50,989 nt of DNA, taken from NCBI GenBank assembly GCA_029932675.1, contig JAOZPP010000013.1:1-50989 (forward strand). The letters are read 5' to 3'. Under the pieces are notes generated by a model that worked only from the letters and a program-made list of their open reading frames with translations, searched no databases and was not told the DNA's origin. Origin of the DNA: a bacterium. GTDB taxonomy: Bacteria; SM23-81; DAOVCL01. Below, in pieces: positions 2 to 12,881 of this stretch. Within the stretch, counting starts at the first letter, position 1; every line of letters starts with the position of its first letter. Position numbers and translations under genes: made by a program.

Positions 2-38
2 GTTTCAATCCTTGTTTTAGTGGATGTTCCGCTCTCAC
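2..38 (-). CRISPR. First repeat of a CRISPR array leaving the window
   Basis: Read on the minus strand, this 37-nt unit begins GTGAGAGCGG and ends AAGGATTGAAAC, the 3' end typical of type I-B repeats. Only one copy is visible, so the array itself is inferred to continue left of base 1. The orientation makes this the leader-proximal repeat: transcription comes from the cas4 side. The exact repeat borders are a guess because there is no second copy to align. Confidence 0.75.
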
Positions 39-804: not shown

Positions 805-855
805 AAGTAATGAGCGAGGGGCAAGGAGCGAGGAGTAATGGGTGAGGAGTCGGAG
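805..855 (+). repeat. Left inverted repeat flanking the first four-helix-bundle gene
   Basis: The plus strand here is made of degenerate units such as GAGCAAGGAGTAATGAGC. The same units occur in inverted orientation at 1303-1352, where they encode the repetitive start (MSEEQ, MSEEQ, MSEGK) of the four-helix-bundle protein. The two arms enclose that gene and could pair into a long imperfect stem, the arrangement of 23S rRNA intervening sequences. Confidence 0.65.
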
Positions 856-896
856 CTAATTTAGGTTTCCCATAAATAACCACGTTAAGCCCCTTC

Positions 897-1352
897 TTAC
901 TCCCCATTTTTTATACCTCTCTTCCGAGATCGAATTAAACCAGAAAGCATTCGGCTGACCTCCGCTAAATCCCCATTGAGTTCCTCAAACTTCTTTTCAT
1001 CAAGATAACCAAGCCGGCGACAGATCTCAAATTGTGTGTCCAGCTCACTCACCGAACCTCTGGCAATAATCCAGAACTGCATCTTCTCCTTTGATGATCT
1101 TCGGGCACATCCCTCTGCGATATTACTTGGAATAGAAATTACTGCTCTTTGTATCTGTGAAATGAGGTTATACTGCTCACTCTTTGGAAAGGCCTTCAAG
1201 GTCTTGTAGACGCTTACAACCAGATCAACACTTCTTTGCCATATTACCAGTCTCCGATGCGGCCTTTCCTCTGCTATTTGCCTATCCACAATTCTTTTTC
1301 CTTCGCTCATTACTCCTTGCTCTTCGCTCATTACTACCTGTTCCTCGCTCAC
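897..1352 (-). CDS. Four-helix-bundle protein (23S rRNA intervening-sequence type), copy 1
   Basis: This 151-residue protein has the family's signature features: LVIWQRSVDLV, FPKSEQYNL, SIPSNIAEG and RGSVSELDTQ. The family (TIGR02436, also related in fold to the Avd protein of diversity-generating retroelements) is small and basic, with no agreed function. The GTG start at 1352 overlaps the cas2 stop codon (GTGA), so translation may be coupled. In-frame ATG codons at residues 8 and 15 are alternatives. Residues 1-18 come from the degenerate flanking repeat, three similar seven-residue units. The gene sits between cas2 and cas4, where no such gene normally occurs, and looks inserted. Confidence 0.85.
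   Translation of the reverse strand: MSEEQVVMSEEQGVMSEGKRIVDRQIAEERPHRRLVIWQRSVDLVVSVYKTLKAFPKSEQYNLISQIQRAVISIPSNIAEGCARRSSKEKMQFWIIARGSVSELDTQFEICRRLGYLDEKKFEELNGDLAEVSRMLSGLIRSRKRGIKNGE
1303..1352 (-). repeat. Right inverted repeat of the copy 1 element
   Basis: These are minus-strand units (GAGCAAGGAGTAATGAGC and variants) that mirror 805-855. They begin exactly at the cas2 stop codon and double as the first codons of the four-helix-bundle gene. Confidence 0.6.
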
Positions 1353-1639
1353 AGAAACAGCGCCTTTACCTCATCTGTCACCAGTTTTTTATCAAATGCC
1401 TGGCCAATGAGTTTGACCTTATTAAAATCATCTTTGCACATAGGGAAGATATAGACGGAATCCTTTTCCTCATTCACCAGGTTTTTTATCTTCAGGCTCA
1501 GTTCGTCAATCCGGTTAAGGTTGAGGTCACCGAGAAAAACCGATTTCTGAACCCGATAGATCCCGGTCCCCAGACAAGTTTTGGCTACTTTATTCCGGAC
1601 TTTATTGTCCTGTATATCGTAAATCACCCAAGTAAGCAT
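1349..1639 (-). CDS. cas2: CRISPR-associated Cas2
   Basis: This 96-residue, ferredoxin-like small protein is the structural partner of Cas1 in spacer integration. The start MLTWVIYDIQDNKVR carries the conserved aspartate (D8) after the first strand, and FPMCKDDF falls in the last strand region. I chose the ATG at 1639; a TTG two codons upstream is also open. No good ribosome-binding site precedes it, perhaps because the upstream DNA is the inverted repeat of a second inserted element. Its stop codon overlaps the next gene. Both neighbours are four-helix-bundle genes, so cas2 is isolated from cas1 and cas4. Confidence 0.9.
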   Translation of the reverse strand: MLTWVIYDIQDNKVRNKVAKTCLGTGIYRVQKSVFLGDLNLNRIDELSLKIKNLVNEEKDSVYIFPMCKDDFNKVKLIGQAFDKKLVTDEVKALFL

Positions 1640-1650
1640 TGGCAAGGAGA

Positions 1651-1690
1651 TTAAGAAATTAGAAAATGGAAAATAGAAAATAAGAAACGG
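1651..1690 (+). repeat. Left inverted repeat flanking the second four-helix-bundle gene
   Basis: The plus strand carries AAAATGGAAAATAGAAAATA-type units. The same units appear inverted at 2096-2178, beyond the other end of the gene at 1700-2095. The unit sequence differs completely from that of the copy 1 element, so the two elements arrived independently. Confidence 0.65.
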
Positions 1691-1699
1691 ATGAATAAA

Positions 1700-2095
1700 T
1701 CAGACAATCATGGTTTTCTTGTAATCCTGTTGTAGCTCTTCGGTTCGGGAGATGTAAGCGTTAAGCACTTTTAAAAGATGAAAAGCGTCATTACGATAAC
1801 TGAGATATTCCTCTTCGGAGATATAATGCTCGTCAAGGCAAACATTTAGATCGTCTAACAATTCATAAAGAGAACCTCGTGATTGTCGGCAGAACTGGAT
1901 ATTCTCTTGATAATGGTATCTCCCGTATCCCTCTGCGATGTTGTTTGTTAGAGAAACCGCCGCTCTTCTCATCTGTGAATTAAGATTGTATTGCTCATCC
2001 TTAGGCAGTTTGCTAGCTAGCTCATATATCCGCTTTCTGAATGCACGAGCAAGTTTATAAGCTTCCAGATCCTCGAAAGACTTAATTTCCCTCAA
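1700..2095 (-). CDS. Four-helix-bundle protein (23S rRNA intervening-sequence type), copy 2
   Basis: This 131-residue protein has the family's signature in LEAYKLARAF, LPKDEQYNL, RRAAVSLTNNIAEGYGR and RGSLYELLDDL. It is only distantly similar to copy 1, so it is not a tandem duplication. It lies between cas1 and cas2, with inverted repeats on both sides. The repeat on the cas1 side supplies the last cas1 codons. The function of the family is unknown; proteins of this type occur inside 23S rRNA genes as intervening-sequence ORFs and, more often, free in genomes next to such repeats. Confidence 0.85.
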   Translation of the reverse strand: MREIKSFEDLEAYKLARAFRKRIYELASKLPKDEQYNLNSQMRRAAVSLTNNIAEGYGRYHYQENIQFCRQSRGSLYELLDDLNVCLDEHYISEEEYLSYRNDAFHLLKVLNAYISRTEELQQDYKKTMIV

Positions 2096-2178
2096 TTCTT
2101 TCCCCTTGTCTTTATTTCCCCAATTTCCATTTTCTTAATTTCCGTCATTTTTTATTTTCTCATTTTCCATTTTCCCAA
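2096..2178 (-). repeat. Right inverted repeat of the copy 2 element
   Basis: On the minus strand this reads as tandem degenerate AAATTGGGAAAATGGAAAAT units, the mirror of 1651-1690. It overlaps the 3' end of cas1: the last residues NWENGK and the stop codon are read from the repeat, so the original cas1 C-terminus was probably replaced. Confidence 0.6.
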
Positions 2179-3155
2179 TTTCTCTCAGCCTTTATCAATT
2201 GGTTTGCCACTCTGTGGCACTCAAATTGGATTGTATCCCTTTGCTGGATGTTCCTTCCCCTGTAACGCACCTTCGTTTCTAATCTCTTGTTAAGGGCTGC
2301 GATGAGGAGCTTTTTTCCTTCCCGGTTAAGGGTGACCCCGTTTCTGATCTGGTCAAAATGCTCCCTTTTTGCTTCCCTTTTACTGAAGAGGTAAAAGGTT
2401 GTTTTCTCCCCTAAGATGCGGAAGGGCTCAATCAGGTCGAAGACAAGGGATTTCTTGTTGTAGTTGTCAGTATGGAGAAAGCCGATATAGGGATCCAGTC
2501 CAGCCAGAATGCAGGCTTTCTCCACCATTGAATAGAGAACTCCATAGCTATAGTTGAGCATTGCGTTGAAGCCATCCTTGGCTGGCTGACGACTGCGTCC
2601 CTCGAACCTCCAGGCCTTGGGGATGAGATATCCTAAGGCAGCAAAATAGCTGCGTCCTGCCCCTCCTTCGATGCCCATCAGGTTGCCCCGCTTCTCCTCT
2701 AAGGTTCCAGAGACCCCTTTGACCTTCTCCTTGGCATGCCTAAGGCTCTTCAGAAAGGTATCTATCTTTTCCGCCTTCGATTCGCGGTGGCGCTTGAGGT
2801 CCTCCAAAAATTGAATCTGGTTCTCTATCTTCTTCTTAATCCATCCAGTAACTAACTTTAATCCCTCCTCAGTTTCAGAGATCTCCAGTTGTCGCCTCCT
2901 GATTTTGGTGGTGGAGCCAAGTTTGGATTGCCAAACCCTTCCATAGGGATTGCCAAAGCGGTCTAAGAAGACTACGTCAATGTTGTGGTTCATAGCCAGT
3001 TCGATGGCATCAGAGGAGAAAGCGGCACAGGTGGTCACCAAAATGGACTGGACCTTGTGGACGGAGATCAGGTTGCGTTGCTCGCCAACCTTTATCTGGA
3101 AGCAATCACCAGACTTGGAGAGATAGGCTCCCGGTGTATTCAGGACAAGTTGCAT
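2160..3155 (-). CDS. cas1: CRISPR-associated endonuclease Cas1
   Basis: This is the integrase of spacer acquisition, 331 residues and the usual length. The metal-binding residues are in place: E163 in GIEGGAGRSYF, H228 in GFLHTD, and D240/E243 in FDLIEPFR. The start is MQLVLNTPGAYL, with an N-terminal beta domain followed by the helical domain. The C-terminal six residues come from an inverted repeat. No gene lies directly upstream on this strand, so adaptation is presumably transcribed from near 3160-3260 independently of the interference genes. Confidence 0.95.
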   Translation of the reverse strand: MQLVLNTPGAYLSKSGDCFQIKVGEQRNLISVHKVQSILVTTCAAFSSDAIELAMNHNIDVVFLDRFGNPYGRVWQSKLGSTTKIRRRQLEISETEEGLKLVTGWIKKKIENQIQFLEDLKRHRESKAEKIDTFLKSLRHAKEKVKGVSGTLEEKRGNLMGIEGGAGRSYFAALGYLIPKAWRFEGRSRQPAKDGFNAMLNYSYGVLYSMVEKACILAGLDPYIGFLHTDNYNKKSLVFDLIEPFRILGEKTTFYLFSKREAKREHFDQIRNGVTLNREGKKLLIAALNKRLETKVRYRGRNIQQRDTIQFECHRVANQLIKAERNWENGK

Positions 3156-3571: not shown

Positions 3572-4121
3572 TTATTCCTTAAGCACTTTCATCAGTCTAT
3601 TCCAGATGGCCATATCTTCAGCCTCATCCGATATTTTCTGTGCCCAAGACTCCAGATACTTTCTATCCAACCTTCCCTTATGTCTTAGGGCTATCCCTTC
3701 AGCATCAATCAAATCCCTAAGGCGATTGGGAATTATCTTGAGCAGCAGAAGATCTTCCTTGGAGGGGAGAAATACATCCTTACCAAAGATTTTTACTGAG
3801 ACCTTTCTTTTCAAGGCACTCCTTTCAAGTTCAGTGGAGGCAATCAAGAGGTCAAGATGAAGCTCCTCAAGAAAGAGTCTGAATACCCCTCTTTCTCTGG
3901 CCTCGGATAAGACCGTCTTTTTATCAAAATCAAATCCCTTCTCTTCTGCTCTGGCAAGAAATGATCTCAGTTCGGATTTCTTTGAAGATTATGATATCAA
4001 CATCCTGGGTGAATCTTGGTTCTCCAAAGACACCAACGGCGATTCCACCGATAATTAAATACTCAATCTTGGCTTCCTCTATCAATTCAATGCAGGTTCT
4101 AAAATAGTCCTTAAACTCCAT
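3572..4121 (-). pseudogene. Frameshifted nucleotidyltransferase of a toxin-antitoxin-like pair
   Basis: The first part (from the ATG at 4121) reads IEYLIIGGIAVGVFGEPRF followed by TQDVDIII, a minimal nucleotidyltransferase core with the GG motif (residues 25-26) and D40/D42. The frame breaks near 3960-3975. One frame over, the protein continues FLARAEEKGFDFDKKTVLSE and runs on to LMKVLKE at 3572. A single small indel explains the break. Its start overlaps the stop of the small gene at 4111-4293, which is intact. Either an inactivated toxin gene or an assembly error. Confidence 0.7.
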
Positions 4122-4293
4122 TCTTTGTAAACTCCTTCTTTATTCTCCTAAATTCCTTATCCAATCCTGAATTGAGAAGAAATTCCATTATCTTTATGCT
4201 TTCTTCTATCTTCAACCTCTGTAAATACTTTACCCTTTCCGCCTCCAGCTTCTCAAACCTGGTTTTATCCCACAAGCTAAAATCTTTTTTCAT
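4111..4293 (-). CDS. Small partner of the nucleotidyltransferase (putative antitoxin)
   Basis: This 60-residue protein, MKKDFSLWDKTRFEKLEA and onward, is mostly charged helix. Small helical genes of this sort are often found just before nucleotidyltransferase genes, and here the two overlap by 11 bases. I start at the second ATG (4293), since the first (4314) adds a stretch (MRDLGGE) that looks like leader DNA. The role as an antitoxin is inferred only from the gene arrangement. Confidence 0.5.
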   Translation of the reverse strand: MKKDFSLWDKTRFEKLEAERVKYLQRLKIEESIKIMEFLLNSGLDKEFRRIKKEFTKNGV

Positions 4294-4397
4294 CTCACCC
4301 CCCAAATCCCTCAACTGTATTACCCGAATTATTCACAAATTGGAAACGAATTGGCATAACCCTCTTAAATTTAAGGTATTATGTGTTTGTCTTGTAG

Positions 4398-5963: not shown

Positions 5964-6650
5964 TTATTTTGACCTTGTTTTTTGGTTTTCAACCTTCACC
6001 ACAGTCCCAAACCCCCGTGAGACAGACTTGCCAATGCCGAGGTAGTTAGGGATGTCAAAGTTCACCTGAAATGTGCCCTTAAATCCTAAAACAGGGATAT
6101 CATCCAGATTAAAGGTATACTCAAAAGCATTCATATCCCCTACAATAATTTCATCTGTAACGACCTCTCTGAGAGACTTGGAGAGCGATAAGAGGTTCCC
6201 AATGAGGATTCGCTTGAGCAACATTATCCTTTTGGTCCCTAAGTTTGTCCTGAGATACTTCTTATAATTATCTTGATTCAAAGCATACCAAGGAGATAGG
6301 AATCTATATTGAATCTGGTCCTCAGTTGTTCCAAAGCTTACCTCTTCAATCTTAATACTCTTTTGGAACACCTCATACTCTTTGTCATCTAACACGAGTT
6401 GCTGTATCTCTATAAATTTTTCCTTTAAGGCATCGACTCCTTCTGTTAATCCTATTATGTAAGGGATGCCTTTGATAATCTTGTACTGGATCCTTGGGTA
6501 ATGATAGATTAACCTTCTATCCTCTGTATGTTGATGAAATAAGGGATCGTTTTTATATAGATTTCCAAAGTATCCTCTTATCTTCTCAGCCATTCTGGGG
6601 CTAAAGTAACGATTTGATTCAATTTTGAAGATCAACAATTTAAGTTTCAT
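5964..6650 (-). CDS. cas6: CRISPR RNA endonuclease Cas6
   Basis: This 228-residue RAMP protein cuts the CRISPR transcript within the repeat. The C-terminal glycine-rich loop GIGKSVSRGFGTVVK identifies the family. The start MKLKLLIF is a first ferredoxin-like strand. The ATG at 6650 overlaps the cas3 stop as TGATG; the frame can also be read from a GTG at 6665. The N-terminal half has several histidines (FHQHTEDRRLIYHYP) that could include the catalytic one. Gene order cas3-cas6 at the operon's end differs from the common type I-B order with cas6 first. Confidence 0.88.
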   Translation of the reverse strand: MKLKLLIFKIESNRYFSPRMAEKIRGYFGNLYKNDPLFHQHTEDRRLIYHYPRIQYKIIKGIPYIIGLTEGVDALKEKFIEIQQLVLDDKEYEVFQKSIKIEEVSFGTTEDQIQYRFLSPWYALNQDNYKKYLRTNLGTKRIMLLKRILIGNLLSLSKSLREVVTDEIIVGDMNAFEYTFNLDDIPVLGFKGTFQVNFDIPNYLGIGKSVSRGFGTVVKVENQKTRSK

Positions 6651-9073
6651 CAGAATATTACACACCCTTCTTCTGTCCTTTTAAAACCAGTTTTATCATC
6701 ATAATTTTGATTCAATCTTTCTGCAGGGATGCGCCCCAGCCACTCATTTATGATATCAACTCCAATTGCCATCCTTCGGGGCACTGAAATGACATATGAA
6801 TTGAACTCCTTACGGATAGAGAGATAGTTTGTATTTCTCTTCTTAAAGTCCTTCTCATTTCTAACTTTTTCTTCATATTTTCTCCAAACATTCTTGGACC
6901 TTTCGTCCTTCTCAACAAAAACATCGATATAGCCACTTTTCTCTTCTATTAAAGAGAAATTAGAGATGCTTTTTTCTTCTATACTGGGGTGATGGAATCT
7001 AAACTCCCTTATAGCATTCCAGATATCATTGGATGGAGTTTGATCCTTTTTAGAAGCAACCAGGGAAAAGTATCGATCTATAAGATCGAAAAAATGAGAC
7101 TCTTCAATGGGTTCTGCATCAATTAGCTCTTTTGAGATACTTGTATGGACCGCCCCATAGATAAGCTTTGAAAGACTTCGCTGATTGTTCATTAGGTTAA
7201 ACACATAGACTTTCCCTTTTTCTTTTCTCAATACCCGATTACATCTACCTGCCACCTGGATTATTGAATCGAGCGGGCCGATGTCCCTTATGGCTACATC
7301 CAGATCCATATCAATCCCTGCCTCAACCACCTGGGTGGATATGACTATGATCTTTTCCTGATTGCTTAAAAGTTTTTTAATCTTCCGGATTCTATCTGCC
7401 CTATCCTTTGGGATGATGTTTGTGGAGAGATAAAAGAGTCTCTTCTCCTTTATGTAGCCTGCAAACTTACCATCCTCTCTTATCATATTATAGAATTTGA
7501 TCGACGAGGCGATTGTATTTAGCACTATAAGGTAAGACTCTCTTTTGTTATGGAGCTTTTTGAATTCAGAAAAAAGGTCAATAAGCTCCATCTCTTTGAT
7601 ATTTGGAATCAAGGTGACTCTATCCAAAGCTCCAAAATAGTCTTTATTCTCCTCCAATAACTCAATACTCTCCTCTTGTCTAAAGATCAATGGTTTTGTA
7701 GCAGTCAGTAGAATTATGTAGCAGTCAAGATACTTCACTAATAGTTTGAATACCTTATTTACCAGAGGCCAATATTTTATGGGGATATTCTGCACTTCAT
7801 CTAAAAGGATTATGGAACCTGCGATGTTATGATACTTCTTCAAGAACCTGTTTTTAAATCCAATTATTGAATGGAGAAGTTGAATGAAGGTAGTGATGAC
7901 TACCTCTGCCTCCCAGGCCTCAACAAGAGACAGAGACTCCTCTATTGACCTTTCTTCATTTCCTGCCTTATATTTAATATCTGTAAGATGATGGTGTTTT
8001 ACAAGATATACATTCTCCTCTGATTCAAAGTCGTTCAATTGCATCAATACCTCTCTTATCACTTCATAGTTCTGTTCAATAATGGATATGAAAGGGAGGG
8101 AATAGATTATCCTTGGGGTATAACCTTTCTCTTCCTTTACTCTATTCCGTAGCTTTAAGGCACAAGAAAAGGAAGTAAGTGTCTTCCCTGTTCCTGTAGG
8201 CGCGGTTAGGGTGAAGACATGATTATCCAGAGGGATATCTAAGATCTTTTGGGTTGCCTTTCTATATATTTCATTCCGGATGCCATTTATTCCAAAAGTT
8301 GCATTAGGATCGATTTTAAGACAAGTCTTTCTGTAGCTATCTACCAAATCTTCAGGAAGAGTTTTTCTTTTTGTTTCTATTACATTGGCTGCATCCCTTT
8401 TATCCGCATCGATCAGCAAGGAGTAGAGGAGGAGGGTGATTATAAATAGTTTAAATCGTATTTGGTCTTTTTCACATTCAAGTAGTTGATAAGATAGTTT
8501 ATCTATCCTTGAAAAAGTACCTCTCCAAGTATCTAAGAAACCATCTATCTTTAGTCCATCTATCAGTTCTCTATACTCTGATTCTATCAAAGAGAGGTTC
8601 CTCTTGATATCCTCAAGTTGGACGGATAATCTCTTCAGCCTACTTCTCCAGGGTTCATCTACTGACAAAAACCCTTTCTCATTTAATTTATTTGATGAGA
8701 CCAGGTCTAACTCTAAGGCATTTAGATCTCCGTGATGGTGGAGAACCACAAAATAAGCAAGTAGTTCCATATACTCATCTCTGTTCTTAAGAAAGGTTCT
8801 TATAAGATAGGAGGCAAATAAAGCGGAGATAAGGCCGTGGTAATGCTTACCTGATGAGTCCTCTGTTCCAAAGAGATGGTTTTGGAAGAATGTAGTATAC
8901 TTCCCAAAGTCATGAGCGATTCCGATAAGATAGCCAATCTCAGGGAGTAGGATATCATCAGTTGGTGGGGTATTCTTCTTTATTGCATTACCCACTTCTT
9001 TGAGATGTTCCTTAAGCAGTTTTGAACCTATCCTTTTTCCCTCTTTTTCAATAGAATGTGAGTAAAATACCAT
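6650..9073 (-). CDS. cas3: CRISPR-associated helicase-nuclease Cas3
   Basis: This 807-residue fusion of HD nuclease and SF2 helicase degrades DNA recruited by Cascade. The HD part has LIGIAHDFGKYTTFFQ (near residue 54) and FVVLHHHGDL. The helicase part has Walker A TAPTGTGKT (near 290), a DEVQ box in LLDEVQNIP (near 424), LLTATKP, STQVVEAGIDMD and QVAGRCNR. All expected motifs are present. The ATG at 9073 overlaps the cas5 stop as TAATG, and the stop overlaps cas6, so the three genes are translationally coupled. Confidence 0.95.
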   Translation of the reverse strand: MVFYSHSIEKEGKRIGSKLLKEHLKEVGNAIKKNTPPTDDILLPEIGYLIGIAHDFGKYTTFFQNHLFGTEDSSGKHYHGLISALFASYLIRTFLKNRDEYMELLAYFVVLHHHGDLNALELDLVSSNKLNEKGFLSVDEPWRSRLKRLSVQLEDIKRNLSLIESEYRELIDGLKIDGFLDTWRGTFSRIDKLSYQLLECEKDQIRFKLFIITLLLYSLLIDADKRDAANVIETKRKTLPEDLVDSYRKTCLKIDPNATFGINGIRNEIYRKATQKILDIPLDNHVFTLTAPTGTGKTLTSFSCALKLRNRVKEEKGYTPRIIYSLPFISIIEQNYEVIREVLMQLNDFESEENVYLVKHHHLTDIKYKAGNEERSIEESLSLVEAWEAEVVITTFIQLLHSIIGFKNRFLKKYHNIAGSIILLDEVQNIPIKYWPLVNKVFKLLVKYLDCYIILLTATKPLIFRQEESIELLEENKDYFGALDRVTLIPNIKEMELIDLFSEFKKLHNKRESYLIVLNTIASSIKFYNMIREDGKFAGYIKEKRLFYLSTNIIPKDRADRIRKIKKLLSNQEKIIVISTQVVEAGIDMDLDVAIRDIGPLDSIIQVAGRCNRVLRKEKGKVYVFNLMNNQRSLSKLIYGAVHTSISKELIDAEPIEESHFFDLIDRYFSLVASKKDQTPSNDIWNAIREFRFHHPSIEEKSISNFSLIEEKSGYIDVFVEKDERSKNVWRKYEEKVRNEKDFKKRNTNYLSIRKEFNSYVISVPRRMAIGVDIINEWLGRIPAERLNQNYDDKTGFKRTEEGCVIF

Positions 9074-9885
9074 TACCACTCCATAAAGGCTATATTCTCC
9101 TTGATGTTTGTCCCCCCCTTCTTCTCCTTATAGATGAGTTCCATATAGGGTATCTTCAGTCTTGCCTTTATTATTTTTTGGTTCTTCTCATAGATAAAAT
9201 CCTCATTCCTCTTTACACTTCTTCCGCTTCCAAACTCAACTGGCATCTTCTCAGAGATATACTGTAGTAGAGTGTCAGCTTCTTCAAACAGAAGCTCTTC
9301 AATGTAATCTTCGCGTAAGACGCTACAAATCTCTATGGGCTGTTTGGAAAAACTTTCTTTTATGGATGCCCCAGTGACTTCATCAATTAGCTCTGCATCA
9401 GCCAGAAATTCTGAACCTCCAAAATATATCGGATATATAGATTTCCTCTCTCTTAATTTTAAGCCCAATCCATTCATTACCCCATCCTCCTGATGCCAGA
9501 AGTAAATCCGATAGATTATCTCCTCTGTGAGGTCTTTTGGGATAACCAACTCGACAGGAGTGGGATACTTAGCTATTTTTCTTTCAATAAAGCGTTTAAT
9601 CACCCCTTTAGCTGTTGTATAACCGTCTTCCTCCTTAGTTCTTATATAATTGACCGTTTGGATCATCTTTCTGATCGAACTCTTGATGGAGATAGCTATC
9701 TTGCAAGAGTTGGCGTTAAACTCCTCATAGTATGTATCCCTCCCTCTCCCCAGGATACCTGCTATTATGCCTATAATTGTTGTTCTTGGAGGGAAGGCAT
9801 AACTGAGTGAGGAGGAACTCGTGTAGAATTTGCGAAAGTGGGCTATCTTGCCTTTTAGGTCAAAGATAAGCAGTCTACTTATCAC
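9073..9885 (-). CDS. cas5: Cascade subunit Cas5 (type I-B)
   Basis: This roughly 270-residue RAMP protein caps the 5' handle of the crRNA. LLIFDLKGKIAHFRKFYTSS and YAFPPRTTIIGIIAGILGRG are the classic Cas5 N-terminal strands and motif. The GTG at 9885 gives the natural start (ISRLLIFDL); a TTG at 9906 is also open. Either choice overlaps the end of cas7, as is normal here. The C-terminus runs into cas3 with a 3-base overlap. Confidence 0.9.
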   Translation of the reverse strand: MISRLLIFDLKGKIAHFRKFYTSSSSLSYAFPPRTTIIGIIAGILGRGRDTYYEEFNANSCKIAISIKSSIRKMIQTVNYIRTKEEDGYTTAKGVIKRFIERKIAKYPTPVELVIPKDLTEEIIYRIYFWHQEDGVMNGLGLKLRERKSIYPIYFGGSEFLADAELIDEVTGASIKESFSKQPIEICSVLREDYIEELLFEEADTLLQYISEKMPVEFGSGRSVKRNEDFIYEKNQKIIKARLKIPYMELIYKEKKGGTNIKENIAFMEW

Positions 9886-10906
9886 CTTTCTGGATAGCCT
9901 CCTCAAGTTTATTCTTCAAATCTGCCTCTTCCTCAATTAGTTTACTGAAATCAGGCCTTAGCTCCTTATCCTGCCAGTAGTAAATCTTGTCAATCTTATC
10001 CTTGTAGTCTTTTAGCTTTTTAACGAGGGTATCCATCTTCAACTGAAGTTCGCCTATATCCCGAAGCCCCTCTTTGGGGTCACACTCGAGATATCTTCGA
10101 AGGTCCCCGATAAAGGTCTCCTGGTCCTTATACTGAACCCGTATGAATAACCTTGGATACTGGCCAATCTTGCTCCGGGTCGCCTGAAGCGGTATTGCAT
10201 TTATTAGAGACTTTTGGAAGAGCCTTATATCATCGCCAGAAAGTCCTGTATGCCCAGCACGCTTTCCGCTTATTATCCCGTGAAAGGCAATGAGGGAGTA
10301 ATAAACTCTATAATCTTTACCAAATGTTCCGTACTCCTCCTCTTGCTCCCTCGTCCTTCCTGCGAATGTCGAGGATATGGTCGAGGACTCTACAAGAGAT
10401 ACCTTGTTCAGCGAGTATCCCCAGTTGAACTGGACAGGTCCTGTGAAGGTAAATGACTCTCCTCGTTCTCCCTTTATTGGCATAGTAGCCCCAAAGAGAC
10501 GCACGTCAATAAAGGCCTGCAACAGATCATTGCTCTCGATTAGCTCCACAATCTTAGACGCATCCGGGCTCCTGCCTTTGTCCAAAGCATCCTTAATCGC
10601 ATTAGCCTTTTTCTTTTTATCATCGGTTTCTTTAGGATCCTTAATGATTTTGTCGCTTACCCAATATGCCAACCTCTGGGTTGAGTCAACTGTTTTCTCA
10701 TCGACTTTGGCTACGAATATGAGATTATCCTTATCCTCAAGGTAATCCCTTATATATCTCTTCAGCCTCACATCACTCACAAGATTTGTCTCGGTCTCGT
10801 AATCCATACGAGGCTTGTTCTCATCGTCCGGGTCCCCATTTGGATTACACATCCTCGCATCATAAATAAAGAGGATGTCACTATTGTTGATCTTTTCATT
10901 AGCCAT
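9875..10906 (-). CDS. cas7: Cascade backbone subunit Cas7 (Csh2 type)
   Basis: At 343 residues it is the repeated backbone protein that lines the crRNA. The start ILFIYDARMCNPNGDPDDEN followed by PRMDYETETNLVSDVRLKRY is diagnostic for the Csh2/type I-B family (TIGR02590). Internal GSGKR-like and FTGPVQFNWGYSLNKV segments agree. The ATG at 10906 lies 25 bases after cas8b. Together with Csh1-type cas8b it fixes the system as subtype I-B. Confidence 0.95.
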   Translation of the reverse strand: MANEKINNSDILFIYDARMCNPNGDPDDENKPRMDYETETNLVSDVRLKRYIRDYLEDKDNLIFVAKVDEKTVDSTQRLAYWVSDKIIKDPKETDDKKKKANAIKDALDKGRSPDASKIVELIESNDLLQAFIDVRLFGATMPIKGERGESFTFTGPVQFNWGYSLNKVSLVESSTISSTFAGRTREQEEEYGTFGKDYRVYYSLIAFHGIISGKRAGHTGLSGDDIRLFQKSLINAIPLQATRSKIGQYPRLFIRVQYKDQETFIGDLRRYLECDPKEGLRDIGELQLKMDTLVKKLKDYKDKIDKIYYWQDKELRPDFSKLIEEEADLKNKLEEAIQKGDK

Positions 10907-10931
10907 CTGTTCTTACCTCCTCTTTTGCCTC

Positions 10932-12881
10932 TTACTTAGAGGCCTTGATCGCCTGATGAGTAGCATAGGCATATCCACTTAAGACATAAAATACATTCTC
11001 CTGATCCGAAAGGGGCTTGTCTATAGTTTTATCCATCAGCCTCTTACACTCGGCAAATATCCCTTCGTTATAGTGCAAGGTCTTATACTTCTTATTATAC
11101 TGGACAATTTTTTCAAATACCTCATTCAATAGCCTAATGAGCTTGTTCTTGTTCATCCCTTGATATGTGATCTTTCCAAGGACAGGCTTTGAATTTCCCT
11201 CTCTGTACTGGGCATTTCCAACTTCACCTATAAGGTATCCTAAAAGAAACATAGCTACTTTGGGTTCATTATAGCCCATCTCGTTTACGAAACTCTTGAT
11301 ACCTTCATCTAAATCAAGGCTATCATAATCCATGTTTCCTTTACCTCCTTTCAAAATTCCAAGCTTTTTCAGATATAAAAGCAGAAGATTTGCTTTAAGG
11401 CTGGCATAAATCAGTCCTATATCTGGGTTCTGCCTTCCAATATTATAGACATCAAATTTCTCAAACCTATAGACTTGGGCAAGTTCGATAAACTGTTGTA
11501 TAAGAAACCTGTAAGATATAGGATTTTCTGAAAAAATGGCATCATAAATTTCGAGAATCTTTCGATATTCTGTGATATCTGCTATTCTCTTTCTCATCGG
11601 TATCAGATAGTATATACCTCGCAGACTGATCTCCCACTTGTTTGGTTCGCCTAATAAATTTTCTCCTGTATCTTTTACTTCATTTGCAACCCTTGTAAGT
11701 ATCTCAAGCCTTGTAGGAGGAACATCCTTTATCAATTTTAATACCTTAAACTCGGCCTGTCTTGCCTTAAAGAAGAGGAAGTTTAGGAAAAAGTTGTTCT
11801 TGATATTTTCAAACTCCTTATATCTTTCAAGTCTCTCTTCAAACTCTTTAAGACCCGCCAGAGACTTGACGGAATTGAAACTATCCTTGATGTAGTCTGC
11901 CCATTTGTCCAGTTGATTTTGGCTAATCCCGGCAGAAAAGAGAAACTTTGGAATTATATAAAGGTTCAAGCCGCCAATATTTGAAGAGAGTCTATTCCTG
12001 ACAAACACTTCTCCAGAAAGCAAATCTCTATAACAGTCCTTGCACAGAGTGAAACTTTTTGTAAAATCACCAGAGAGCTTAGAGGAGAATCCTACCTTGT
12101 CTGTGATGTAGTATCCAAGAGCAGACCTTGCCCTAGCAAATTTAGGCCTATCTGTAATAGGTTTATTTTCACCACAAGACGAACATACTTTCTCCTTATC
12201 TCCAAACAAGGAGTCTATCTTTTCTTTGATTACCAAGCGTTGATATTCTTCATTTTCTGCCATTAGTTTATTGTTTATCTTTAATGTGTACAGACCGATA
12301 TCTCCTTTTTTTAGAGAAACTTTTGATTCTTGACTTATGAAGTTATCCATTTTAGCCCTGATGTCTTTCATAACCTCTTTGAAAATAGCGGATTCTTTAA
12401 TGTTCTCTCTTCTCCTTTTATCCACTTTTTTCTTCAGTTCTTCCATATATCCTTGCTCAACAATTCTACATTTTTCCAGGTTTAATACGAATTTTCTTCT
12501 ACCTTTCAGACCTATATCACAAAACATTGTATCAATCACTTGGTTTAACATCCTGGAAAATGTGCTTCCTTCGGGAGCTTTTTTAGTTAAATTCGGAATC
12601 ACTTGCGAGATAAGATAATCAAGATTAGAAGTAGTAGAGTAAATTTGGGGATTGTTACTAGGCAATTTACCCATCCACAAATATTTTTGGGCAGTATCCT
12701 CTTTGATATTTTCGAATTCTATATTTATCTTGCGCTCAAAAATGTTATAATTAAGAATAACGATCTGAAGTTCCCTGTTTTGTTTTTGAGGTAGATTCTC
12801 TAACAGGCTATCAAGGATTCCAAATTCTTCTTCTTTTCCACTTAATCTTATCTTTCCTATCTCCTTAATTCCCTCAATCAT
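10932..12881 (-). CDS. cas8b: Cascade large subunit Cas8b (Csh1 type)
   Basis: This 649-residue protein is the large subunit that recognises the PAM. It has the zinc-binding pair CSSC (in KVCSSCGENKP) and CKDC (in TLCKDCYRDL) separated by about 60 residues, as in the Csh1 family (TIGR02591). The C-terminal end is helical (IAECKRLMDKTIDKPLSDQE), consistent with a fused small-subunit region. The ATG at 12881 follows the MNT gene by 17 bases with an AGGGGAG site. It is the first cas gene of the operon but not its first gene. Confidence 0.92.
   Translation of the reverse strand: MIEGIKEIGKIRLSGKEEEFGILDSLLENLPQKQNRELQIVILNYNIFERKINIEFENIKEDTAQKYLWMGKLPSNNPQIYSTTSNLDYLISQVIPNLTKKAPEGSTFSRMLNQVIDTMFCDIGLKGRRKFVLNLEKCRIVEQGYMEELKKKVDKRRRENIKESAIFKEVMKDIRAKMDNFISQESKVSLKKGDIGLYTLKINNKLMAENEEYQRLVIKEKIDSLFGDKEKVCSSCGENKPITDRPKFARARSALGYYITDKVGFSSKLSGDFTKSFTLCKDCYRDLLSGEVFVRNRLSSNIGGLNLYIIPKFLFSAGISQNQLDKWADYIKDSFNSVKSLAGLKEFEERLERYKEFENIKNNFFLNFLFFKARQAEFKVLKLIKDVPPTRLEILTRVANEVKDTGENLLGEPNKWEISLRGIYYLIPMRKRIADITEYRKILEIYDAIFSENPISYRFLIQQFIELAQVYRFEKFDVYNIGRQNPDIGLIYASLKANLLLLYLKKLGILKGGKGNMDYDSLDLDEGIKSFVNEMGYNEPKVAMFLLGYLIGEVGNAQYREGNSKPVLGKITYQGMNKNKLIRLLNEVFEKIVQYNKKYKTLHYNEGIFAECKRLMDKTIDKPLSDQENVFYVLSGYAYATHQAIKASK

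What the first reader, a model, noticed from the sequence alone, without database searches (positions are those of the whole stretch)
805..2178. Two intervening-sequence-type four-helix-bundle elements inserted into the CRISPR adaptation module
Seen: the order is cas1, four-helix gene, cas2, four-helix gene, cas4. Each four-helix gene has its own inverted repeats, of unrelated sequence (GAGCAAGGAGTAATGAGC units for one, AAAATGGAAAATAGAAAATA units for the other). Each element touches the 3' end of a cas gene: one repeat encodes the last six cas1 residues and its stop, the other starts on the cas2 stop codon (GTGA overlap). Known: the family is found as ORFs in 23S rRNA intervening sequences that fold into RNase III-cut stems, and Avd of diversity-generating retroelements shares the fold. 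Inference: two independent arrivals at the same kind of site suggest targeting of gene ends or a role linked to Cas1-Cas2, for example binding the fragmented transcript.
Basis: partly seen in the sequence, partly recalled or inferred. Interest (0 to 1): 0.75.

Follow-up and report, generated by a model that had tools for sequence, protein, structure and literature searches.

The report
Hairpin-flanked gene cassettes in CRISPR operon
Two small genes, each wrapped in its own pair of mirror-image 7-letter repeats, sit between the genes that let a bacterium record new viruses; they look like mobile cassettes that occur across bacteria and have settled repeatedly, and independently, in exactly this operon.

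Summary
On the minus strand the order is cas1 - IVP2 - cas2 - IVP1 - cas4 (type I-B), and both extra genes match PF05635/TIGR02436 (23S rRNA intervening-sequence protein, IVP). Each is bounded by its own inverted repeats. The repeats are not special to cas. They are degenerate tandem arrays of about 7 nt: 5 of 6 IVP genes in this genome have them, as do 64% of 98 IVP loci from many genomes (6.5% of mismatched flank pairs, 9.5% of control genes). The 5' arm is G-rich in 50 of 54. IVP2 was exchanged recently as a unit: dS 0.056 against a same-genus genome, versus about 1.0 and 1.3 for cas1 and cas2, with the low-divergence tract ending at the arms. IVPs are enriched in adaptation modules (9 of 222 cas1/cas2/cas4 junctions against 2 of about 533 other junctions in the same loci, p=4e-4), with at least five independent arrivals on a tree. 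The IVP-adaptation association has been listed before (Zhang 2014; Altae-Tran 2023); I found no description of the heptad-armed element. Best reading: mobile, hairpin-bounded IVS-like cassettes at gene junctions, the cas adaptation module being a favoured site. Transcript excision and IVP-heptad binding are inferred.

The parts
2..38 (-). CRISPR direct repeat at the contig edge, next to cas4
   Evidence: Rfam RF01320 CRISPR-DR7, 46 bits
213..797 (-). cas4 (ATG at 797; the mechanical ORF runs to 824)
   Evidence: TIGR00372 6.3e-41; homologous start in L008
805..853 (-). IVP1 element, 3' arm: ~7-nt imperfect repeats (GAGCGAG GGGCAAG GAGCGAG GAGTAAT on + strand)
   Evidence: inverted repeats I2-I4; paired in the predicted RNA fold
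897..1352 (-). IVP1, four-helix-bundle protein; domain 939-1253; GTG start at 1352 overlaps the cas2 stop, ATG alternatives inside the repeats
   Evidence: PF05635 1.3e-38, TIGR02436 3.7e-38
1301..1354 (-). IVP1 element, 5' arm, beginning on the cas2 stop codon and encoding MSEEQVV MSEEQGV
1349..1639 (-). cas2 (ATG at 1639)
   Evidence: PF09827 2.6e-22
1646..1687 (-). IVP2 element, 3' arm (AAAATGG AAAATAG AAAATAA on + strand)
   Evidence: inverted repeats I1, I5; 1646-1699 is 54/54 identical in the G001 copy
1700..2095 (-). IVP2, four-helix-bundle protein
   Evidence: PF05635 2.6e-32; 97.5% nt identity to the G001 copy, dS 0.056
2105..2187 (-). IVP2 element, 5' arm, running into the 3' end of cas1
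   Evidence: inverted repeats I1, I5; the last ~9 Cas1 codons are element-derived
2160..3155 (-). cas1; codons at 2160-2189 (AERNWENGK*) lie beyond the conserved Cas1 end
   Evidence: PF01867 1.3e-82; alignments A1, A2

Best explanation
Each of the two units is a hairpin-bounded mobile cassette of the IVS kind: an IVP (S23/Avd-like four-helix pentamer) gene between two complementary arrays of ~7-nt repeats, placed in the junction between two co-transcribed genes. Shown here: the cassette anatomy, its breadth across bacteria, the fixed polarity (G/purine-rich 5' arm), exchange or replacement of cassettes independently of the surrounding cas genes, ORF-less derivatives, purifying selection on the protein, and enrichment in cas adaptation modules. 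Inferred: the cassette is co-transcribed, its arms pair into a stem that a double-strand RNase such as RNase III cuts, which keeps the flanking cas messages usable; the IVP pentamer binds the heptad hairpin (RNA or single-stranded DNA) and promotes spread, probably with host enzymes. Adaptation modules are a favoured site, perhaps because they move often between genomes and tolerate cargo at their junctions.
For: 5 of 6 IVP genes in the genome carry inverted short-period arms, each of different sequence. 64% of 98 IVP loci score >=16 for matching arms, versus 6.5% of cross-locus pairings and 9.5% of control ORFs; dominant period 7, then 8; G>C in the 5' arm in 50/54, p=4e-11. Window versus G001: IVP2 dS 0.056, cas1 1.0, cas2 1.3, with the tract ending at the arms. 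Nitro177 versus Nitro178: Cas1 91%, Cas2 96%, but IVP 60% with other heptads; G089 versus Desant180: Cas1 93%, IVP 51%, other junction. ORF-less hairpins with the same heptads in the other junction of the same operon in L124 and L180. Empty site: G041 has cas1-cas2-cas4 without IVP. Near-identical copies at two loci in G264. Period-7/8 arrays elsewhere: 37 in 0.8 Mb of IVP-rich genomes, 8 in 0.8 Mb of IVP-free ones. dN/dS 0.05-0.11 in diverged pairs.
Against: No transposase, reverse transcriptase or target-site duplication was identified, so the mobilising chemistry is unknown. RNA folding of the whole elements is only modestly better than shuffled sequence (z -1.76 and -1.47). About a third of IVP loci, including L003 in this genome, show no arms above threshold. 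G050 has seven heptad arrays but no detectable IVP. One IVP clade is found only in cas modules, which fits domestication better than pure selfishness. Orientation with neighbours is no different from ordinary operon genes.
Confidence: 0.6

Rival explanations
1. The IVP proteins are accessory factors of CRISPR adaptation, recruited repeatedly because they help Cas4-Cas1-Cas2 (for instance by holding prespacer DNA, or by setting Cas1:Cas2 stoichiometry through processing at the hairpins).
For: 9 of 222 adaptation junctions versus 2 of about 533 others in the same loci, p=4e-4; at least five independent arrivals; one clade seen only in cas modules; always the same strand as cas in the loci examined. 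Altae-Tran 2023 (PMC10910872) lists 23S rRNA IVP among associations of adaptation modules.
Against: Most relatives with the same Cas1 family lack IVP (73 of 80 loci). IVPs are replaced by distant ones between closely related modules. Most IVPs lie outside cas loci in the same armed cassettes.
Confidence: 0.25
2. The arms are a regulatory device of ordinary IVP genes (translation or autoregulation through the repeats) and the genes spread by ordinary recombination; there is no dedicated mobile element.
For: G/purine-rich 5' arm; heptad arrays near start codons were proposed as translational regulators in Beggiatoaceae (PMC4679880).
Against: ORF-less hairpins at other junctions, element-limited low divergence, and matching arms on both sides.
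Confidence: 0.1
3. Chance: IVP genes are common and two happen to lie in this operon.
For: IVP genes occur in 160 of 386 sampled genomes.
Against: In the same 386 genomes, 4 of the 150 listed IVPs lie in cas adaptation modules; my rough expectation is about 0.1. Same-locus control p=4e-4.
Confidence: 0.02

Closest known systems
23S rRNA intervening sequences (IVS) encoding S23p, e.g. Coxiella burnetii (PMC4990558)
   Same: A few hundred nt, an S23/IVP ORF, complementary ends that form a stem around the ORF.
   Different: Located between protein-coding genes, not in 23S rRNA; arms are short-period arrays whose sequence differs from element to element; RNase III cleavage not shown here.
IVP genes in cas loci (Zhang, Doak and Ye 2014, PMC3936711; Altae-Tran et al. 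2023, PMC10910872)
   Same: 23S_rRNA_IVP genes in cas loci, including I-B, and with adaptation modules.
   Different: The passages I read of these papers do not describe the inverted heptad arms, cassette mobility, ORF-less derivatives, or Cas1 C-termini encoded by the arm.
Heptamer arrays: TAACTGA in Beggiatoaceae, Cyanobacteria and Bacteroidetes (PMC4679880); GGGAATC in Xanthomonas (PMC4692102); STRR of cyanobacteria
   Same: Intergenic ~7-nt tandem repeats; Xanthomonas arrays often in inverted pairs. IVP genes on five cyanobacterial plasmids all have such arms.
   Different: Not tied to an IVP gene in the text searched; S23 and IVP are not mentioned in PMC4679880.
Avd of diversity-generating retroelements
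   Same: Same four-helix fold family (NF033474 3.5e-10 for IVP1).
   Different: Below the Avd cut-off (40.1 versus 80 bits); PF22296 bAvd 33 versus 40 bits.

Membership tests
23S rRNA IVS element | ORF of the S23/IVP family | tested here: met
   PF05635 1.3e-38 and 2.6e-32
23S rRNA IVS element | complementary ends that can form a stem around the ORF | tested here: met
   MFE folds pair the arms
23S rRNA IVS element | located inside 23S rRNA | tested here: not met
   lies between cas genes; no rRNA match in the window
23S rRNA IVS element | excised from the transcript by RNase III | not testable with these tools
   needs RNA-end mapping
Diversity-generating retroelement (Avd) | accessory protein passes the Avd model | tested here: not met
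   NF033474 40.1 bits, cut-off 80
Diversity-generating retroelement (Avd) | reverse transcriptase and template/variable repeats nearby | not tested
   no systematic RT search was run
Heptamer (STRR-type) repeat arrays | tandem ~7-nt repeats in non-coding DNA | tested here: met
   elsewhere in IVP-rich genomes
CRISPR adaptation accessory gene | recurrent, non-random linkage to cas1-cas2 | tested here: met
CRISPR adaptation accessory gene | affects spacer acquisition | not testable with these tools
   needs a genetic assay
DNA transposon | own transposase and target-site duplication | tested here: inconclusive
   only the IVP ORF lies between the arms; no pair of occupied and empty sites close enough to read a duplication

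The most novel reading that the evidence does not exclude
IVP cassettes and their ORF-less derivatives form one unrecognised class of mobile genetic element, and the orphan heptamer arrays known from cyanobacteria, Beggiatoaceae and Xanthomonas are its footprints, with the IVP pentamer as the trans-acting protein. CRISPR adaptation operons are one of its preferred homes.
Probability: 0.4. Interest if true: 0.85.

Novelty: new variant of a known kind. Interest (0 to 1): 0.63.

Why it matters
It gives a protein partner and an element anatomy to two loose ends: the widespread IVP/S23 proteins of unknown function, and heptamer repeat arrays for which no mechanism was evident. It also suggests why IVP genes keep turning up beside CRISPR adaptation genes and makes the question testable: passenger hot spot or recruited cofactor.

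Tried and rejected
Same repeat spread elsewhere in the genome: the IVP1 heptad pattern occurs only at IVP1. Arms as a cas-specific signal: rejected, they flank IVPs elsewhere too. Phage origin: no IVP1 relative in 50,697 phage records. Co-orientation as proof of targeting: rejected, control genes are as often co-oriented (81/98 versus 69/84). Laying the whole genome out for scripts was not available. Two phylum searches around G089 and G119 reached only 4 and 3 genomes. Checking XCC0516 of Xanthomonas for GGGAATC arms was not done: the single named-genome scan went to Cas1. A Poisson estimate rests on lists cut at 150 rows, so I use it only as support.

Full report
Observation. The window's minus strand reads cas1 (3155-2160), IVP2 (2095-1700), cas2 (1639-1349), IVP1 (1352-897), cas4 (797-213), ending at a CRISPR repeat (2-38). 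Families were assigned by Pfam, NCBIfam and Rfam; type I-B effector genes lie at 5964-12881. They are better described as imperfect tandem arrays with a period near seven.

Arms belong to the class, not to cas. The genome holds six PF05635 genes. Five have such arms, each of a different sequence: GAGCGAG/GAGTAAT, AAAATGG/AAAATAG, GGTGATA/GGTGTTA, AATTAAG/AATTGAG and AACGCCT/AAGTGCCT; L003 has none. I fetched IVP loci from a spread of bacterial genomes. Matching arms (score >=16 in 200-nt flanks) occur in 64% of 98 loci, against 6.5% when left and right flanks of different loci are paired and 9.5% for other ORFs in the same loci. Of 54 elements with strong arms, 34 have period 7, seven period 8, two period 9; the 5' arm has more G than C in 50 (p=4e-11), so the arms have a fixed polarity relative to the ORF. 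Five IVP genes on named cyanobacterial plasmids all show heptad arms.

Insertion and exchange. In the same-genus genome G001 (matching L169, Candidatus Zixiibacteriota CSMAG_1030) IVP2 sits in the same junction with dS 0.056, while cas1 and cas2 have dS 1.0 and 1.3; 54 of 54 nt on the 3' arm side are identical and divergence resumes at the arm ends, apart from a 40-nt deletion in one arm. The element was therefore exchanged or re-acquired after the modules separated. Homing and gene conversion cannot be told apart with these data.

Adaptation modules are a hot spot. In the 386-genome sample, cas1-IVP-cas2 occurs in G109, G119 and G089 besides the window's genus. A scan with this Cas1 family returned 80 loci; seven carry IVP in the module: between cas1 and cas2 in Zixiibacteriota, two Nitrospirota, Brocadiaceae, Kuenenia and a MAG labelled Euryarchaeota, between cas2 and cas4 in a Desantisbacteria, and additionally upstream of cas1 in the two Brocadiaceae. 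Nine of 222 adaptation junctions hold an IVP, against two of about 533 other junctions in the same loci (odds ratio 11, p=4e-4); the loci are related, so this p-value is optimistic. On a tree of 106 IVPs the 13 cas-module proteins need six changes, at least five forced by well-supported branches; IVP1 and IVP2 of the window lie far apart. One clade of six is found only in cas modules.

Turnover at the junctions. L177 and L178 share 91% Cas1 and 96% Cas2, yet their IVPs are 60% identical and have different heptads. G089 and L180 share 93% Cas1; G089 has the IVP in cas1-cas2 and an ORF-less hairpin of the same heptads in cas2-cas4, L180 has the mirror arrangement with other heptads. L197 also has an ORF-less heptad hairpin in cas2-cas4. 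In diverged pairs IVP dN/dS is 0.05-0.11, so the protein is kept functional.

Arrays without IVP. In random 20-kb regions, period-7/8 arrays number 37 in 0.8 Mb from ten IVP-rich genomes (eight of ten genomes) and 8 in 0.8 Mb from ten IVP-free genomes (two of ten, seven of the eight in G050); periods 10, 11 and 13 give 0-1. Five of the IVP-rich regions contain an IVP ORF themselves, so a minority of these arrays may be arms rather than solo arrays. G050 has no TIGR02436 match, an unexplained exception.

Mechanism. The anatomy is that of the 23S rRNA IVS, whose terminal repeats form a stem cut by RNase III in Coxiella (PMC4990558), moved to gene junctions. Folding pairs the arms of both window elements, but z-scores are modest (-1.76, -1.47). 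Excision from the cas transcript, binding of heptads by the IVP pentamer (solved relative XCC0516, PDB 2gsc), and the enzyme that moves the cassette are inference.

Known and new. IVP genes in cas loci were reported in 2014 (PMC3936711), and 23S rRNA IVP appears in a figure legend on novel associations of adaptation modules in 2023 (PMC10910872). Heptamer arrays are described without a protein partner (PMC4679880, PMC4692102). In eight literature searches I found no description of the armed cassette; subscription journals are mostly not held. STRR heptamers of cyanobacteria are from my own knowledge and the citation in PMC4692102.

Noticed in passing
L005 (G000:C109) 1-55 and 468-522: A 55-nt exact repeat 467 nt apart around an armed IVP at a contig end, as left by an assembly-graph cycle; may mean tandem copies or a circular form of the element.
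   Followed up: no
L055 and L068 (G264): Two near-identical IVP copies at different loci differ mainly in the variable positions of the heptad arms, and both lie beside CRISPR-like repeats.
   Followed up: partly
L109 (G171:C39) 100-170 and around 880: ORF-less hairpins with the heptads of a neighbouring IVP element, one right after a stop codon.
   Followed up: partly
L187, L206, L207 cas1-cas2 junction: Archaeal (Methanophagales/ANME-1) relatives carry a different insert between cas1 and cas2, with a PIN-like reading frame (my reading, not searched); the junction may accept cargo in general.
   Followed up: no
L093 and L116; L051 and L052: IVP genes at the same non-cas junctions in different genomes, by my reading of the proteins cysD-cysN and rfbC-rfbB.
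   Followed up: no
L009 / L066 (G001): cas1 of the same-genus genome is frameshifted, and a truncated IVP with a repeat arm lies after a nucleotidyltransferase-like gene.
   Followed up: no
window 3572-4314: Nucleotidyltransferase-like gene pair beside cas1 is 92-94% identical in G001 while cas1 is 84%, so this stretch may also have been exchanged.
   Followed up: no
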